Source: Methylophaga sp.
Lineage (GTDB): Bacteria > Pseudomonadota > Gammaproteobacteria > Nitrosococcales > Methylophagaceae
Length of the DNA stretch: 41,005 nt
NCBI GenBank assembly: GCA_002706095.1
Contig: PAJP01000006.1
Coordinates: 1 to 41,005, forward strand
Direction: 5' to 3'
A program made the position numbers and the translations under genes. The number at the start of each line of letters is the position of its first letter. Position 1 is the stretch's first letter. This document shows, piece after piece, positions 15,564 through 38,313 of the stretch. Under the pieces are notes generated by a model that saw only the letters and a list, made by a program, of their open reading frames with translations, was not told the origin of the DNA and ran no database searches.

Positions 15564-15590
15564 GTACCTTGTGAAGTCTTTATAAAGAAA

Positions 15591-15674
15591 TTAATAAGTA
15601 AATATATTACTTAATATAACACCAATAAGATATTTATAAGTACTCTATAAAGACCTTATTAATATACTTATTAA
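15591..15674. repeat. AT-rich inverted repeats between divergent promoters
   Basis: Exact 10-bp inverted repeat TTAATAAGTA (15591-15600) / TACTTATTAA (15665-15674), and a nested TAAGTAA/TTACTTA pair (15595-15601, 15607-15613). CTTATTAA occurs twice near 15655-15673. This could be an operator array or a DNA-unwinding element. The rest of 15564-15749 holds no gene. Confidence 0.55.
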
Positions 15675-15749
15675 GTTCTTTTAAAAGGGTAACGTAATAG
15701 GTTCCTCAAGTCAATACACCGGATGAAATTATTTTATCGTGTAATTCTG

Positions 15750-29734: not shown

Positions 29735-32428
29735 ATGTCATTTGAATGGTTGAACGAAAACTCACGTAAATTTCTACAGTCTGGATACACATTAGAGGGA
29801 GAAACTGCCGAAGGACGTATCCGAGATATTTGCGATGCTGCTGAGAAACGTCTTGGGTTAGAAGGATTCTCTAACAAGATGTATGACTACATGGCAAAGG
29901 GTTTCTATAGCTTGTCGAGTCCTGTATGGGCAAACTATGGCCGTGAAGATCGTGGGTTGCCTATCTCATGTTTTAACAGTCACTGTGAAGACAGCATTCC
30001 AGACATTCTTTTTACACAGTCTGAGATTGGTATTATGTCAAAACTTGGCGGTGGCACGTCAGTTAATCTAACACCTATTCGACCAAGGGGTAGCGACATT
30101 ACCAATAATGGAAAGACTTCTGGAGCAGTACATTTTGCACGACTCTTCGAACAGGTTACTGATGTAATCTCCCAAGGTTCGCAGCGAAGGGGTCGGGTAG
30201 CACCCTATCTGAGTCTTGAGCACGCGGACGCAGAAGAGTTTTTAGAGATTGCACGCGACGGGAATTTGATCCAAGATGTTACTACAGGCGTCACTGTTTC
30301 AGATGAATTTATGGAATCTGTTAAACGCGGGGAGACTGAAAGAGATAAGCGGAACCGTAAGATTTGGGCGAAAACTTTGAAAGTTCGTGGAGAGATAGGC
30401 TTTCCGTACTTGGTGTGGTTGGATAACGCAAATCGAAATAAACCAGAAGTCTACAAAGACAAGGGTATGGATATTCACTCTAGTAATCTTTGTGTATCCC
30501 CCGAGACTAAAATCTTAACTTCTGAAGGTTATATCGAAATTGCCGAATTAGAAAATGAAGATGTACAAGTATGGAATGGTAAAGAGTGGTCTGAAACTAC
30601 AGTTCGAAGGACAGGGGATAACCAGAAGCTTGTAAAGGTTATTACTTCTAATGGATTGGAACTAGAATGTACACCTTACCACAAGTTCTATGTGCAGACT
30701 TCCTACAGTTGTAGTAAAGTGATTGAAAAGCGCGCACAGGACTTGCAAACCGGTGATAAGCTGATTAAGTTTGACTCTTTGCCTGTCGTAGAGGGTTCCG
30801 AAGTCCTAGACAACGCTTACGCAAACGGTTTCTATACTGGCGATGGCTGCTTAACTGCTGACGGAAAACGCATTTACCTCTACCACGACAAAAGACTCAA
30901 TGCTGTAAAAGAACGGCTTGGAGACATCTTTAAAAATTGGTATGTTCAAGACAACTTGAACCGGGAGTATGGTCACAGCGATGTATTGAAAGATAAGTTC
31001 TTTGTGCCTACCCATGACTATACTGTAGAAAGTCGTTTAGAATGGTTAGCAGGTATATTCGATTCTGATGGGACAATCGCCAGAAATGGAAAGACACAAT
31101 CCTTGCAACTGGGGAGTATTAACAAAGGGTTTTTGCAAGATGTTCAAATGATGCTGCAAACGCTTGGGGTAAACTCACGTATCAACCATGCTGCCGATGC
31201 TGGTGAAAGGATGATGCCTGCTAATGATGGTTCTGGTGAGAATAAAGCGTTCTATTGCCAAGAAGCTTGGAGATTATTGCTCGGTCAACATGAAGTAGGC
31301 AAGCTTGTAGATTTAGGTATAAAATTTAGCCGCCTTAATCTTGACTACAGTTATCGTGGGAACCGTGAATGCAGCCACTTCAACAAAGTGGTAGAAGTTA
31401 TTGATGAGGGGCGTTATGACAACACCTACTGTTTCACTGAAAGTAAACGTGGAATGGGTATGTTTAACGGTATTTTGACAGGCCAATGCTCGGAAATATC
31501 ACTGCCTTCAAACAATGAAGAGAGCTTTGTGTGCGTGCTTTCATCAATGAACTTGAAGAAGTATGATGATTGGAAAGACACGGATGCTGTAGAAACACTT
31601 GTGTACTTCCTTGACTCAGTAGTTACAGAAAGCCTTGAGAAACTTGAAGCTATGCGGGATTCTGAAGACCATGAAAAGGAAACAACATTCTTTTTTATGA
31701 AGCGTGCATATCGTTTTATGAAGCGTCACAGAGCGCTCGGAATGGGCGTACTAGCTTACCACACAATGCTTCAAGACAAGATGATCCCTTTTGAGTCTGA
31801 AGAAGCAAGAGAATTGAACAAAGAAGTCCATAAGGTTATTGAAGAGAAGGCTTACAAGGCTTCTAAAGAGCTTGCAGGATTGTTTGGTGAACCTGAAGTG
31901 CTTGAAGGGTATGGGAGACGTAACACAACGCTCATGGCGTGCGCCCCTACAAAGTCTTCAAGTCTTTTGGCTGGCGGTGTGTCGCAGGGTATTGAGCCAC
32001 TATTCTCTAACTATTACATTGCTGATTTTGCAAAGCTCAAGGTAGAAGTTAAAAGTTCAGCATTGGAAAAGCTTTTGCAAGAATATGGCAAGGACACACC
32101 TGACGTTTGGGACAGCATTTCTAAAAATGATGGCAGTGTTCAGCATCTGGACTTCTTGAGTGAACATGAAAAGAATGTGTTCAAGACAATGCAAGAAATC
32201 AGTCCTAAAGAAATTATTGACCACGCCGCTGATCGTCAGGTATATTATGACCAGAGCCAGTCTTTGAATATCATGGTTCATCCAAGTATGCCTGTGAAAG
32301 AGATTAACAGTCTTATGTATTATGCTTGGGAACGTGGTGTTGTATCACTCTACTACCAATACAACTTGAACGCCTCTAAACAACTTGCTACGGGCCGTAA
32401 GGATGACTGCGTGGCTTGCGAAGCATAA
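29735..32428 (+). CDS. nrdA: class I ribonucleotide reductase alpha subunit, interrupted by an intein
   Basis: 897-aa precursor, about 565 aa after splicing. ISCFNS contains the first active-site Cys; the GGGTSVNLTPIRP and RGRVAPYL loops follow. The catalytic Asn-x-Cys-x-Glu is split by the intein and rebuilt as SSNLCSEI. LMACAPTKSSS lies near residue 730, and the C-terminal CVACEA carries the redox CxxC. No ATP-cone: the protein starts at WLNENSRKFL. It reduces ribonucleoside diphosphates to build dNTPs. The AGGAGATATTTAATA site precedes the ATG. Confidence 0.92.
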   Translation: MSFEWLNENSRKFLQSGYTLEGETAEGRIRDICDAAEKRLGLEGFSNKMYDYMAKGFYSLSSPVWANYGREDRGLPISCFNSHCEDSIPDILFTQSEIGIMSKLGGGTSVNLTPIRPRGSDITNNGKTSGAVHFARLFEQVTDVISQGSQRRGRVAPYLSLEHADAEEFLEIARDGNLIQDVTTGVTVSDEFMESVKRGETERDKRNRKIWAKTLKVRGEIGFPYLVWLDNANRNKPEVYKDKGMDIHSSNLCVSPETKILTSEGYIEIAELENEDVQVWNGKEWSETTVRRTGDNQKLVKVITSNGLELECTPYHKFYVQTSYSCSKVIEKRAQDLQTGDKLIKFDSLPVVEGSEVLDNAYANGFYTGDGCLTADGKRIYLYHDKRLNAVKERLGDIFKNWYVQDNLNREYGHSDVLKDKFFVPTHDYTVESRLEWLAGIFDSDGTIARNGKTQSLQLGSINKGFLQDVQMMLQTLGVNSRINHAADAGERMMPANDGSGENKAFYCQEAWRLLLGQHEVGKLVDLGIKFSRLNLDYSYRGNRECSHFNKVVEVIDEGRYDNTYCFTESKRGMGMFNGILTGQCSEISLPSNNEESFVCVLSSMNLKKYDDWKDTDAVETLVYFLDSVVTESLEKLEAMRDSEDHEKETTFFFMKRAYRFMKRHRALGMGVLAYHTMLQDKMIPFESEEARELNKEVHKVIEEKAYKASKELAGLFGEPEVLEGYGRRNTTLMACAPTKSSSLLAGGVSQGIEPLFSNYYIADFAKLKVEVKSSALEKLLQEYGKDTPDVWDSISKNDGSVQHLDFLSEHEKNVFKTMQEISPKEIIDHAADRQVYYDQSQSLNIMVHPSMPVKEINSLMYYAWERGVVSLYYQYNLNASKQLATGRKDDCVACEA
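30491..31486 (+). mobile_element. intein with LAGLIDADG homing endonuclease in nrdA
   Basis: 332 aa, NrdA residues 253-584, inserted before the catalytic Cys. Block A: CVSPETKIL; block B: ECTPYHKF; two LAGLIDADG-type motifs, NGFYTGDG and WLAGIFDSDG; end block: YCFTESKRGMGMFNGILTGQ followed by extein CSEI. The final residue is Gln where most inteins have Asn; splicing-active inteins with C-terminal Gln are known (for example in a virus RNR). Both endonuclease motifs keep their Asp, so it is probably an active homing element. Confidence 0.9.
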
Positions 32429-34628: not shown

Positions 34629-34790
34629 TTATGTTTGTTTCTTAATAAGTTTTAATAACTCACTCTCATGGAACAGTTTATCTACAACACGTACACAAGA
34701 TAACAAGACGAGTGTGTTAAACAGTGTGAAAGTCATTGTGATTAAGAAGTAGATAAGCTGCCATTCTTTAATAGTCAATGAATCAAGCAT
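34629..34790 (-). CDS. small membrane protein, holin candidate
   Basis: 53 aa from ATG 34790, which overlaps the preceding gene by 8 bases; the longer frame from 34850 lies inside that gene. MLDSLTIKEWQLIYFLITMTF and the following LFNTLVLLSCVRVVDKLF form a hydrophobic helix region with a charged C-terminus. A class III-like or small single-helix holin is plausible beside the endolysin. Confidence 0.5.
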   Translation of the reverse strand: MLDSLTIKEWQLIYFLITMTFTLFNTLVLLSCVRVVDKLFHESELLKLIKKQT

Positions 34791-35397
34791 CTTGTGTAGC
34801 CTGCACAGGCGGGTTATCGTCAGCAACAAAGTTTGAAATATCGTTGACAATAGGTTGCATTTGATCTAAAGTATTTGCAGCATCTAAAGATTCATGGACA
34901 CCTTTACACCAGCTAAAGCAACGTTGGACATGCCTTGATACTGTCTTTGCAACCGTTAATGCAGTAGCTGTATCAAAGGTTGTCCATTGTCCTGGTGTTA
35001 CTTCGAAGTCTACTGATACAAGATCAGGATCGTTATTAATGGTTGTCACAAGCTGTGCAAGACGGTTCTGGGAACCTTCGTCAGTTCTTACAAAAGTCTC
35101 AGGAGTTACCCAATACCCACCACGCTCTACAGTCTTGCGACGATCTGAAGCACGTGTTTTAAATTCTTGTCGCATGGTGGTGTAGAAGGATTCTTCGGAG
35201 AGTTCAAACATCCAATCAGCGGGTTCAAAAGTATCTTCAGCAATACCGTAGATTGTAGGAACACCTGTTGAGAATGTTGATTGAATATCGAATGTTGGGG
35301 TAACACCGTCAGGATGTTTTGGGCCATTCTTTGCAGGTTCTTGTGAAACAGGTTTATTGGTTTTCTTATCAACTAATGTGTAACGGATGTATTTCAT
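34783..35397 (-). CDS. DUF4376-type tail-fibre-associated protein
   Basis: 204 aa. The second half has the DUF4376 pattern: RASDRRKTVERGGYWV early, then GQWTTFDTATALTVAKTVSRHVQRCFSW (read in parts). Such proteins usually sit behind tail-fibre genes and are likely fibre-assembly or fibre-tip components. Acidic C-terminal tail. Here it follows an HNH endonuclease gene and the 722-aa fibre. Confidence 0.65.
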   Translation of the reverse strand: MKYIRYTLVDKKTNKPVSQEPAKNGPKHPDGVTPTFDIQSTFSTGVPTIYGIAEDTFEPADWMFELSEESFYTTMRQEFKTRASDRRKTVERGGYWVTPETFVRTDEGSQNRLAQLVTTINNDPDLVSVDFEVTPGQWTTFDTATALTVAKTVSRHVQRCFSWCKGVHESLDAANTLDQMQPIVNDISNFVADDNPPVQATQDA

Positions 35398-35421: not shown

Positions 35422-35967
35422 TTAAATGATTTCTTTAATTTCTGACAGACGTTTTTGTTTGGCTTGCATGTAAACGTCATATGCTTCTTGTTCGGTTTCA
35501 AAACGACCTAAGTAAATCTTTTTACCGCGTATCCTAATGTTAGCCAACCACTTCCCCCGAGACTTATCATAACAAACACCTTGTAAACCTTTACGCTTAA
35601 CACTATGCATATTTGCCACATTATCACCTATACTTATGTCACGCAGGTTGTCCCAAGCGTTGTTGAAAGGGTTGCCGTCGATATGGTCAATGACACCTTT
35701 AGGGTCTTCGCCAGTAACAAGTTTGAAGATCAGTCTGCCTATTGGGTAATTTAATGCTTTCCCTTGGGATGTGAATCTTACAATCATTCTCCCCTTATGC
35801 GTAGTCCCAACGATTTTACCGGAGAGTGTATTGTTAAACCTTTTATGCGCGTTGTTCGTGTTAAAGTGTGTTCTTGGACGTTCTTTCCAAGTAAGTTGGC
35901 CTGTGTTGTCATTGTAGTCAAAGCACTCTTGTAGGAATTGCTGTTGCGGTAATGGTTTAAAGTACAT
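35422..35967 (-). mobile_element. HNH homing endonuclease with AP2 DNA-binding domain
   Basis: 181 aa, AAAGGAGTTTTAA before the ATG. The HNH core is VIDHIDGNPFNNAWDNLRD, preceded by YPIGRLIFKLVTGE. The C-terminal AP2 domain reads LQGVCYDKSRGKWLANIRI, then YLGRFETEQEAYDVY. It is a freestanding mobile gene set between the tail fibre and its associated protein. The gap 35968-36144 contains no other gene. Confidence 0.88.
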
Positions 35968-36131
35968 TTAAAACTCCTTTACTCATAAGGTGTACTTTAA
36001 AGTTTATACTGGAAACCTTACAACAGCAAGACTCAGTTCAGGGCTTCAACAATGATTAGTAGAGATGGTGCTTGCCCGGAGGCAGCGACCACCAAGGTTT
36101 AGGTTATAGGGATGGGTACTTCGTTCCAACT

Positions 36132-36145
36132 ACGCTTCGCTGCGT
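36132..36145 (-). repeat. short hairpin at the tail-fibre stop
   Basis: ACGC/GCGT with loop TTCGCT, 4-bp stem, starting at the stop codon of the fibre gene and inside the high-GC block. Confidence 0.35.
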
Positions 36146-36264
36146 TACACTTCGACCCATCTAACTGCGCGGACGTAGTACGAGTCCGACTTGAGGTACG
36201 TGCCCTGGTCGCCATTGTCGAAGCGCTGGCGCCAAGCGACCCCAGCGGAGAGCTGCGTTGAAGT
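36145..36264 (-). other. candidate diversity-generating variable region (VR)
   Basis: The last ~40 codons of the tail fibre. By hand count 72 of 120 bases are G/C (60%), against 51 of 120 (about 43%) in the adjacent upstream segment of the same gene. At least 11 solvent-type positions use NNC codons (CTC, GTC, CGC, CGC, GAC, GAC, GGC, TAC, CTC, GAC, TAC). That is what adenine-specific mutagenesis of AAC codons yields. The lectin-like fold ending in YVRAVR is typical of known DGR targets. No reverse transcriptase, Avd or template repeat is visible. Confidence 0.55.
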
Positions 36265-38313
36265 CCAGTAGTAATTAGCAACAAACGCCTCACTCGCACC
36301 AGATTGGTAGATAGCAATAGAAGTCTGTGCAGGATTACTAGAAGTATAATCACCACCAACAGGATCACTATTAGGGTTAGAACCATTACCACCAGGATTA
36401 GGCCCATAACTAGAATTTACATAGTTAGCCTGAGTAGTGGGTTTCAAATACCGATAACAAATCTCAAGTTCATCAGCACTAGGCAAATGCCAATCAGTGT
36501 AACCATTGATACTAAGATTATTGCAAAACCCCGCCGCAACACTTGTAGAAGAACCACCTGCCGCTACAATCGCTGCGGTATTACTTGCACCATCATTAGT
36601 AGAGGTTGCCCCTGGAACATCTGGATCAACAGTCCACTCCCAAGGTAATGTTGAACCGGCTTCACCACCTTGCGCTTTAGGAGCAACTACCAACGCATAA
36701 GTAGTACCACCTACAACGATATTAGCGCCTGCATAATAACCACCACCAAAAGGTTCACCAGCACTGCTTGGATCAAATACAAAGAACTGCGCTTCAGTAG
36801 TAAATGTAGAAGTACCCCATGCAGAAGCTCCTAACTGAGAACCGATATGTCTTACACGGATACGGTATTCAGTAGACTCAGCAAGTTGTCCTGAAGGAAC
36901 CGTAATAGAAGTAAGATTAGAAGTGTTGTTCATCGAAGACCATACTAAAGAATCATTCGAAGCTAAACGGATTTCCCAATCTGTTGCTTGATGGGTTTCA
37001 CTAATAGGACTTGAAAAGTTACTCGTAGTGATTGTCGGTGTTTCTCCAACATTAATCTCACCATTCGAAGGGCTTGTGATAGTAGGTGTGGCAGGCCGCT
37101 CAGCAGTCTCAAAAGAAGCTGTTTGTGACCAAGAGGATACTGTTAATGTATTGCCATAATAACGAACCCTTGCGTAGTAGGTTGTATTAGGTTGTAAATC
37201 AGCATCTACAGACCACTGTAAAAGATTAGTCGTGTCATTTAAAGACTCTGCAATAACATTACTAAACGTGATGTCAGTAGCTACTTGCCAATCAGTTGCA
37301 GTGTGTGTGTCAAAGCCTGCTGGTGTGGTTGTGAAGTTCGAAGATTCTAACGTGATATTTGTAGGCATATTAGTAGCACCATTTACAGGGAATATAATAG
37401 ATGGACGGTTAATTCGAGAAGACCCGATAGCAAGTTCGAAGTCATAAGCAACACCCCCTTTAGTGACTGTTAAAATGACCCCGCCAGTAGCACCTGCATC
37501 AATATCTACAGAAATTAGATCATCCGTGATAGAGACATTCCCAGTACCACCATTATCAAACTCAATAGAAACTTCATAAGTATCGAAAGATGAGAAGTTA
37601 GTGATTTGATAATTCTCAGAAGAACCTGCTGTAATCACAGGATTGCCTGATAAAGCTACACCAGCAGTTGTTGATTTAATATCATCAGCTACGGATTTTA
37701 ACTGGCGAGGGCTGATGAAACGATCATCACCAGTACCATTATCAATGTCTGATTGACGTGCTTTACGCACAGCGCCTTTATCAGATTCCGTAGCATCTGG
37801 TAACGTACCACTTGAAAGAACACCACCTGTTATCCAAGAGGCATTAATATTCTCAACAAGCTGTCGAATCTGCGAAGGGTCTGCAAAGATAGAACCAGGA
37901 GTACCTTGGTCAATATCTTGTTGAGCAGCTTTACGAACAACACCTGTAGATTCTTCTGTGGCAAGTTCTTTTAGAGCATCGAATGAGAAGGGTTGTTCCC
38001 ATACGTTTGCAGTATCGTACTTAGGATTGACACCTGTATGTGTCTCAGTTGCACGGTAAACCTCACCATCTTCATCTTGTACATAAGATTGGTTAGCTTG
38101 GTATTCAGTGTTTGCATCCCATTCAGGGATACCCATTTGGATGATATGTGCAAGCGCACGGTCATTACGGTTTTGAAGCCAGTTTTCAAATTGGAAAGGG
38201 GGGATTTCAGCAACCCACCCTTGGAGTTTCTTTGAATTAGAGGGTTCTACAGCTTCCCCACCTGCTGCCCAAATTGTATTCGTAAGGTTTAAGGGTTTTT
38301 CAATCTTAGTCAT
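36145..38313 (-). CDS. tail fibre with FnIII-like repeats and C-terminal C-type-lectin-like (DUF1566) domain
   Basis: 722 aa. Residues ~1-110 are an attachment-type N-terminus (IWAAGGEAVEPSNSKKLQGW, GIPEWDANTEYQ). Two short repeats GVVRKAAQQDIDQGTPG / GAVRKARQSDIDNGTGD follow (~140-210). Two fibronectin/Ig-like repeats (RPSIIFPVNGATNMP and PATPTITSPSNGEIN) lie at ~310-510. The C-terminal DUF1566 domain contains GYTDWHLPSADELEI and ends YYWTSTQ...YVRAVRWVEV. It should bind the host receptor. The last 40 codons differ in base composition and codon use; see the separate entry. Confidence 0.85.
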   Translation of the reverse strand: MTKIEKPLNLTNTIWAAGGEAVEPSNSKKLQGWVAEIPPFQFENWLQNRNDRALAHIIQMGIPEWDANTEYQANQSYVQDEDGEVYRATETHTGVNPKYDTANVWEQPFSFDALKELATEESTGVVRKAAQQDIDQGTPGSIFADPSQIRQLVENINASWITGGVLSSGTLPDATESDKGAVRKARQSDIDNGTGDDRFISPRQLKSVADDIKSTTAGVALSGNPVITAGSSENYQITNFSSFDTYEVSIEFDNGGTGNVSITDDLISVDIDAGATGGVILTVTKGGVAYDFELAIGSSRINRPSIIFPVNGATNMPTNITLESSNFTTTPAGFDTHTATDWQVATDITFSNVIAESLNDTTNLLQWSVDADLQPNTTYYARVRYYGNTLTVSSWSQTASFETAERPATPTITSPSNGEINVGETPTITTSNFSSPISETHQATDWEIRLASNDSLVWSSMNNTSNLTSITVPSGQLAESTEYRIRVRHIGSQLGASAWGTSTFTTEAQFFVFDPSSAGEPFGGGYYAGANIVVGGTTYALVVAPKAQGGEAGSTLPWEWTVDPDVPGATSTNDGASNTAAIVAAGGSSTSVAAGFCNNLSINGYTDWHLPSADELEICYRYLKPTTQANYVNSSYGPNPGGNGSNPNSDPVGGDYTSSNPAQTSIAIYQSGASEAFVANYYWTSTQLSAGVAWRQRFDNGDQGTYLKSDSYYVRAVRWVEV

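What the first reader, a model, noticed from the sequence alone, without database searches (positions are those of the whole stretch)
36145..36264. Tail-fibre C-terminus looks like a DGR variable region, but the retroelement is not in view
The last ~40 codons of a DUF1566/C-type-lectin fibre jump from about 43% to 60% GC (hand count), and codons at candidate variable positions are nearly all NNC. Known DGR targets have this fold, this end motif (YVRAVR) and AAC-derived codons. The window has no reverse transcriptase, no Avd-like gene and no template repeat. Either a DGR cassette lies elsewhere in the phage genome, or a remote or host-encoded DGR acts in trans, or this is a captured hypervariable receptor domain.
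Basis: partly seen in the sequence, partly recalled or inferred. Interest (0 to 1): 0.75.

Follow-up and report, generated by a model that had tools for sequence, protein, structure and literature searches.

The report
Orphaned hypervariable tip of tail fibre
The tip of this phage's tail fibre was clearly shaped by a self-mutating retroelement that relatives still carry next door, but in this phage that machinery is gone and a DNA-cutting gene sits in its place.

Summary
The last codons of the fibre gene (VR 36169-36258, minus strand) jump to 60% GC and NNC codons in an Lcl_C, C-type-lectin-like domain. Metagenomic relatives L012 and L013 have the same fibre followed by avd, a 90-nt template whose mismatches to the VR all fall at A, and a reverse transcriptase. 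So this is a genuine DGR variable region. The window phage is complete in its contig (72,762-bp closed unit) and has no template, avd or RT; the host assembly's only RVT_1 matches are a Drt3a/Drt3b pair. Where relatives keep avd-TR-RT it has an HNH/AP2 endonuclease (35422-35967). L117 and L118 look intermediate: avd intact, template cut to about 31 nt, HNH instead of RT. VRs of window, L010 and L011, without RT in the records held, differ at template-A positions (19 of 33 versus 4 of 57). Best reading: an orphaned VR, the cassette lost and its slot held by a homing-type endonuclease. Action in trans by another phage's DGR is not excluded.

The parts
36145..38313 (-). tail fibre gene (722 aa); phage tail-fibre N-terminus, Ig-like middle, Lcl_C / C-type-lectin-like C-terminus
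36169..36258 (-). variable region (VR), 90 nt, orphaned: no template repeat found in the phage or host assembly
   Evidence: aligned without gaps to the 90-nt template repeats of L012 and L013; VR differences among window, L010, L011 sit at template-A positions
36098..36168 (-). end of the gene after the VR plus stop codon and about 50 nt of non-coding DNA that is nearly identical in L010 and L011 and similar in the DGR-bearing L012 (not in L013); possible remnant of the target-recognition block
   Evidence: no significant hairpin predicted here
35422..35967 (-). HNH_3/AP2 endonuclease gene (181 aa) in the slot that holds avd-TR-RT in L012/L013
   Evidence: clade of five HNH proteins found at this locus
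34783..35397 (-). DUF4376 gene (tail-fibre PHROG), the conserved flank on the far side of the slot
   Evidence: directly follows RT in L012/L013, HNH in window/L010/L011/L117/L118, and the fibre itself in L122

Best explanation
The 3' end of the fibre gene is the variable region of a diversity-generating retroelement (DGR) whose avd, template repeat and reverse transcriptase have been lost from this phage lineage. In related phages the order is fibre-VR, avd, template, RT, DUF4376 gene; here it is fibre-VR, HNH/AP2 endonuclease, DUF4376 gene. The endonuclease belongs to a small HNH lineage found at this slot in five phage records, two of which still keep avd and a truncated template. The most likely course (inferred) is that an HNH homing-type endonuclease entered the cassette, displaced RT and part of the template, spread between phages by recombination, and the rest of the cassette later decayed. 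The present VR is then one frozen product of earlier mutagenic homing and works as an ordinary receptor-binding tip that can change only by normal mutation or by recombination with other phages. Shown: the VR's nature, the absence of the cassette, the HNH in the slot, the truncated template in L117/L118. Inferred: that the HNH is an active homing enzyme, that it caused the loss, and that the tip binds a receptor.
For: Fibre homologues L012 and L013 (66% and 64% identical over the gene), L015 and L119 have avd and RT directly downstream with A-restricted template-VR pairs. Of 31 locus rows with both avd and RT, a few of them duplicate records, 28 show a template with no non-A mismatch in its best 60 nt and 3 have 1-2; the window phage (L009), L010, L011, L117 and L118 have 13-16. 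Phage complete: 42,001-bp self-overlap with 5 mismatches, unit 72,762 bp. No RVT_1 or L012-type RT in the records of L009 (72,839 bp), L010 (13,760) or L011 (50,141) (L013 and L015 rang as controls in both). Profile search of the six-frame phage unit found no avd or RT remnant (best E 0.84; L117's avd rang at 2e-28), and no template remnant beyond chance-length runs, while the same scan found the L117 stub. L117/L118: intact avd, 31-nt stub of the template with no non-A mismatch to the VRs of L117, L118 and L122, then HNH. L117-L118 blocks from the VR's end through HNH are 94-100% identical (one intergenic block 82%), most of the fibre before them 72-88%. The HNHs of the five slot phages form a clade (support 0.81 among 38 HNH).
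Against: The VR backbone of window, L010 and L011 is less drifted than the domain before it (third-position differences 0 of 30 against 31 of 177 for L010-L011, 1 of 30 against 42 of 176 for window-L010), and about 50 non-coding nt after it are nearly identical; a long-dead target would be expected to drift. HNH proteins of window and L011 are only 37% identical although the flanking DUF4376 proteins are 97% identical, so the slot's history is not one simple insertion. L122 and L171 lack the cassette without any HNH in the slot, so an HNH is not needed for loss. In L117-L118 the first fibre blocks (89-100%) and the start of DUF4376 (91-98%) are also fairly alike, so the module's outer edges are not sharp. 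L010 and L011 are fragments or may be, so an RT elsewhere in them is possible. Homing activity is untested.
Confidence: 0.7

Rival explanations
1. The VR is still a live target: a DGR carried by a co-infecting relative (or another element) supplies RT and template RNA in trans and keeps rewriting it.
For: A-position-limited differences among three phages without RT in the records held; low third-position drift in their VRs and conserved downstream block. In BPP-1, donor-plasmid avd, RT and template act on a target block placed in a recipient phage or plasmid (PMC3240598, passages).
Against: No template in viral contigs matches this VR: the VR/TR pattern found only the three VRs of L009, L010 and L011 themselves; of 11 loci with the generic template core, the best (L012) has 6 non-A mismatches, the others 9-17. 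Both scans need exact matches, so a slightly different template would be missed. No template or VR relative in 63 genomes of the host order other than own C6 (the one 2-mismatch hit lies among unrelated genes). VR identical in the L009 record, though that record may not be independent.
Confidence: 0.17
2. The VR varies by recombination: whole fibre tips are swapped between DGR-bearing and DGR-lacking phages, the HNH gene helping by cutting the partner's locus.
For: L011 is window-like in parts of both flanks (identical over 180 nt of the fibre; DUF4376 97% in protein) but L010-like in the tip and HNH; L117/L118 share a near-identical avd-HNH module behind diverged fibre DNA. Nuclease genes at boundaries of exchange between phages are described (PMC10448857, abstract).
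Against: Swaps alone do not confine differences to template-A positions; they could only redistribute variants that a DGR made. In L117/L118 the shared module starts at the VR's 3' end, so the VR itself was not shared. No cleavage data.
Confidence: 0.08
3. It is no DGR target at all: an ordinary GC-rich, laterally acquired fibre tip.
For: Many Lcl_C fibres recovered have no RT or avd nearby (43 of the 80 viral loci kept, each with at least 2.5 kb downstream; 21 have RT, 3 avd only, 13 too short); fibre tips are often acquired (recalled).
Against: Gap-free alignment to the DGR templates of L012/L013 with 6 and 9 non-A mismatches in 90 nt, and A-position-limited polymorphism among the closest relatives, Fisher 2e-7.
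Confidence: 0.03

Closest known systems
Phage DGR target genes with C-type-lectin tips (BPP-1 mtd; tail fibres of crAss-like and other phages)
   Same: Hypervariable last ~30 codons of a fibre, NNC codons at variable positions, C-type-lectin-like fold, relatives with A-restricted template-VR pairs, avd and RT directly downstream
   Different: In this phage template, avd and RT are absent from the complete phage unit
Incomplete DGR cassettes in crAss-like phages of genus I AlphacrAssvirinae (PMC7290462: 15 of 91 genomes complete, 66 incomplete; 80 with VR, 30 with template)
   Same: Related phages differ in how much of the cassette is left; many keep a VR without a template
   Different: The term HNH does not occur in that paper's main text; here an HNH/AP2 gene of one lineage sits in the slot and two phages show avd plus a cut template plus HNH
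Free-standing phage homing endonucleases (HNH with AP2 domain)
   Same: HNH_3 plus AP2 domains, position next to a structural gene, recombination boundaries close to it
   Different: Occupies a retroelement's place; cleavage and homing not tested

Membership tests
Diversity-generating retroelement (complete cassette) | Reverse transcriptase of DGR type | tested here: not met
   No RVT_1 on C6, only two matches on C10, which are Drt3a/Drt3b; no L012-type RT in own genome
Diversity-generating retroelement (complete cassette) | Template repeat matching the VR except at A | tested here: not met
   (whole phage unit both strands; host assembly by DNA search and by a pattern with up to 3 mismatches)
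Diversity-generating retroelement (complete cassette) | Accessory gene avd (not universal) | tested here: not met
   no avd remnant in the six-frame phage unit; L117 avd found at 2e-28 as control
DGR variable protein (target) | Lcl_C / C-type-lectin-like fold with VR at the C-terminus | tested here: met
DGR variable protein (target) | Differences between alleles confined to template-A positions | tested here: met
   19 of 33 A positions versus 4 of 57 others polymorphic among window, L010, L011, using L012's template as proxy; 20 of 35 versus 3 of 55 with L013's; own template not available
DGR variable protein (target) | Recognition block (IMH and hairpin) after the VR | tested here: inconclusive
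   downstream block conserved in L010/L011 but no significant hairpin in window, L010, L012 or L013 (z -0.6 to 1.1); L117, L119, L171 have one (z -3.5, -2.4, -2.6)
HNH homing endonuclease | HNH catalytic domain with DNA-binding domain | tested here: met
   HNH_3 36.7 bits, AP2 35.0 bits, both above cut-off
HNH homing endonuclease | Site-specific cutting and spread into alleles lacking it | not tested
   only indirect: near-identical module behind diverged fibre DNA, mosaic L011
DRT type 3 defence pair (host RTs considered as possible DGR RT) | Drt3a and Drt3b models above cut-off, adjacent | tested here: met
   Drt3b 611.7 bits (cut-off 350), Drt3a 316.8 (cut-off 200), adjacent ORFs

The most novel reading that the evidence does not exclude
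RT-less members of this phage group have outsourced fibre diversification: they keep a functional DGR target block but no retroelement, and receive new VR alleles from DGR-bearing relatives during co-infection, either by retrohoming in trans or by HNH-driven replacement of the fibre tip, so that an HNH endonuclease and a DGR are alternating occupants of one slot and RT-less phages exploit diversity made by others.
Probability: 0.13. Interest if true: 0.78.

Novelty: new variant of a known kind. Interest (0 to 1): 0.47.

Why it matters
RT-centred surveys miss targets that are not next to an RT (stated for remote targets in PMC8144416, passage), so targets that have lost it are hard to see. This case shows how such orphans can be recognised (relatives with cassette, A-limited differences, truncated template) and gives an apparent intermediate in which an HNH gene stands in place of the RT and most of the template. 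It makes two questions testable by sequence: how long a hypervariable tip survives once its retroelement is gone, and whether RT-less phages still draw on the diversity made by DGR-bearing neighbours.

Tried and rejected
A hidden cassette elsewhere in the phage: rejected. One 23-nt A-tolerant run on the minus strand of the phage unit (13 identities) was judged chance-length by my own rough estimate of about one such run expected; no tool computed that. The host RTs as a DGR: rejected, Drt3a/Drt3b. G017 pattern hit as a host template: rejected, neighbouring genes are unrelated; its two weak DNA hits likewise. L009 as independent proof that the VR is frozen: not used, because its 72,839-bp record has a 77-bp terminal repeat and no substitution against the first C6 copy over the whole unit (one N only), so it may come from the same material. 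Hairpin after the window VR: not significant. First structure job with 6 sequences failed (pLDDT 32.5); the second with 58 worked. A genome-contig scan with the whole fibre alignment, whose patterns fell in the N-terminal part, found nothing; with the C-terminus it gave 78 distant loci, of which I used 13 (L035-L047) and 8 in alignment A6. No phage-collection record is near by DNA; 8 Pseudomonas phage records match the tip at under 60% identity by protein and were not followed up. One search kept the best 80 of 143 viral loci and the best 80 of 218 HNH loci; the rest were not seen. The HNH tree used the 38 of the 45 best-scoring HNH matches that were at least 120 aa long, scored by a profile made from the window and L011 HNH. 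L173 (avd, no RT in the stretch held) and L036 (part of an RT, no avd or template found) were not followed. NCBIfam gave no DGR-specific RT model for L012/L013 RT, only sub-cut-off matches led by group II intron RT, so 'DGR-type' rests on the adjoining template and avd. Literature: listings for 'diversity-generating retroelement' with 'homing endonuclease' (8 papers) and with 'HNH endonuclease' (7), and broader lists. I saw passages of PMC12386605, PMC8144416, PMC3240598 and PMC13220884, a term search without hits in PMC10743442, the abstract and outline of PMC10448857, and passages plus section 3.3 of PMC7290462; none of these passages shows an HNH replacing a DGR RT. Absence in print is not claimed beyond these searches.

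Full report

The genome around it. The window is the start of contig G000:C6 (114,763 bp). The contig repeats itself at an offset of 72,762 bp over 42,001 bp with 5 mismatches, none in the fibre, so it holds a closed phage unit of 72,762 bp. It encodes primase/helicase, DNA polymerase, ribonucleotide reductase, PhoH and endolysin and is assembled with a 3.57-Mb genome. A metagenome record (L009, 72,839 bp with a 77-bp terminal repeat) is the same phage without a substitution against the first copy, possibly from the same material.

Relatives with the cassette. Relatives in IMG/VR were found with the C-terminal domain. L012 and L013 have fibres 66% and 64% identical over the gene, followed by avd (126 aa), a template repeat and an RT (ORFs of 384 and 400 aa), then the DUF4376 gene. 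In both, all mismatches within the 90-nt repeat fall at A in the template (15 and 14 of them). The RTs match RVT_1; NCBIfam has no better than sub-cut-off matches for them. The L012 and L013 avd proteins match the NCBIfam Avd and Pfam bAvd models with E 3e-5 to 5e-4, and L117's matches the NCBIfam model at 7e-8 and no Pfam model, all below those models' cut-offs. Of 31 locus rows with avd and RT (some duplicate records), 28 have a template with no non-A mismatch in the best 60 nt and 3 have one or two. This is the DGR anatomy, and the window VR aligns to it without gaps, with 6 non-A mismatches to L012's template and 9 to L013's.

The cassette is missing here. The phage unit has no second copy of the VR, no template or remnant by an A-tolerant scan on both strands, and no avd or RT remnant by profile search of six frames. 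RVT_1 rings only twice in the host assembly, in adjacent genes that are Drt3a and Drt3b. No relative of the L012 RT at E 1e-20 was found in 63 genomes of the host's order, own genome included (L013 and L015 rang in the control search). The records of L010 (13,760 bp, a fragment) and L011 (50,141 bp, perhaps a fragment) also lack RVT_1.

What sits in its place. Between fibre and DUF4376 gene the window has an HNH_3/AP2 protein of 181 aa (35422-35967). L010 and L011 have an HNH gene in the same place; that of L011 is 37% identical to the window's, although the DUF4376 proteins are 97% identical. L011 is window-like in parts of the fibre (180 identical nt) and in DUF4376 but L010-like in the tip and HNH: the locus is mosaic. 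L117 and L118 (tips 58% identical to the window's) keep an intact avd of 121 aa, then a 31-nt stub of a template with no non-A mismatch to the VRs of L117, L118 and L122, and then an HNH gene; RT and the rest of the template are gone, and neither record holds RVT_1 (9,185 and 22,900 bp). From the VR's 3' end through the HNH, L117 and L118 are 94-100% identical per 90-nt block except one intergenic block at 82%; the fibre before it is mostly 72-88% (its first four blocks 89-100%), and DUF4376 falls from 91-98% to 79-80%. That fits a module that moved recently between phages, though its outer edges are not sharp. L122 (89,992 bp) and L171 (108,833 bp) have VR-like tips and no cassette, no HNH in the slot and no RVT_1, whereas L119, close to L171, has the full cassette. 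In a tree of 38 HNH proteins the five slot HNHs form a clade with support 0.81; of the 80 HNH loci kept (of 218 found) only those five have an Lcl_C tip within the stretch held, only L117 and L118 an avd, and none an RT. The window's HNH lineage thus appears tied to this slot.

Has the VR gone on changing? Among window, L010 and L011, 19 of 33 template-A positions but 4 of 57 other positions differ (Fisher 2.2e-7; 20 of 35 and 3 of 55 with L013's template), and all 23 differing positions are first or second codon positions. One of the four non-A sites is A in L013's template. Third-position differences are fewer in the VR than upstream for L010-L011 (0 of 30 against 31 of 177, p 0.01), window-L010 (1 of 30 against 42 of 176, p 0.007), window-L011 (p 0.004) and L118-L122 (p 0.005), and also where one or both partners carry a DGR (window-L012 p 0.001, L012-L013 p 4e-5); the contrast is not significant for L117-L118, L117-L122 and L119-L171 (p 0.08, 0.21, 0.09). 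The pairs are not independent. So the window-group VRs were overwritten from near-identical templates more recently than their flanks diverged. Either each lineage lost the cassette recently, which fits HNH modules sweeping through DGR-bearing phages and leaving each recipient's VR in place, or the targets are still served from outside. No template fitting this VR was found: the VR/TR pattern hit only the VRs of L009, L010 and L011, and 11 loci with the generic template core have 6 to 17 non-A mismatches to it. Both pattern scans demand exact matches, so a slightly different template would be missed.

Comparison with what is known. Loss of parts of a DGR is known: in crAss-like genus I, 15 of 91 genomes had the full cassette, 66 incomplete ones, and 80 had a VR but only 30 a template (PMC7290462, passages and section 3.3); complete cassettes and fragments in other crAss-like groups are mentioned in PMC12386605 (passages). 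Nuclease genes at boundaries of exchange between phages are known (PMC10448857, abstract). A hairpin after the VR helps target recognition in BPP-1 (PMC3240598, passages); a significant one is predicted in L117, L119 and L171 but not in window, L010, L012 or L013. What I have not met in the listings searched and passages seen is an HNH gene in the place of a DGR's RT with a cut template beside it. I therefore file the finding as an orphaned DGR target, a new variant of a known kind.

Noticed in passing
G000:C6:1-114763 (window is 1-41005): The contig runs about 1.58 times round a 72,762-bp phage unit; the two copies differ at 5 of 42,001 positions, one of them an N at 41006.
   Followed up: partly
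L003 478-3443 (G000:C10): Host assembly encodes an adjacent Drt3a/Drt3b antiviral reverse transcriptase pair, both above NCBIfam cut-offs.
   Followed up: yes
window 29735-32428: Ribonucleotide reductase large subunit of 897 aa; its best PHROG matches leave a gap of about 380 residues in the middle; the L011 homologue shows intein-like sequence there (by eye). Not tested.
   Followed up: no
window 15574-15684 and C6 68560-68673: A 111-114-bp stretch repeated at about 78% identity elsewhere in the phage, with shorter inverted matches.
   Followed up: no
L010 1258-1790: HNH gene of L010 falls into two overlapping frames, a frameshift or a sequencing error.
   Followed up: no
L173 7262-7546: Avd match without RT in the roughly 4 kb held after the fibre, with a distant fibre: possibly another decaying cassette.
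   Followed up: no
L176 2884 and 7381: One record with two fibre tips that both match a single template (0 non-A mismatches each in the best 60 nt).
   Followed up: no
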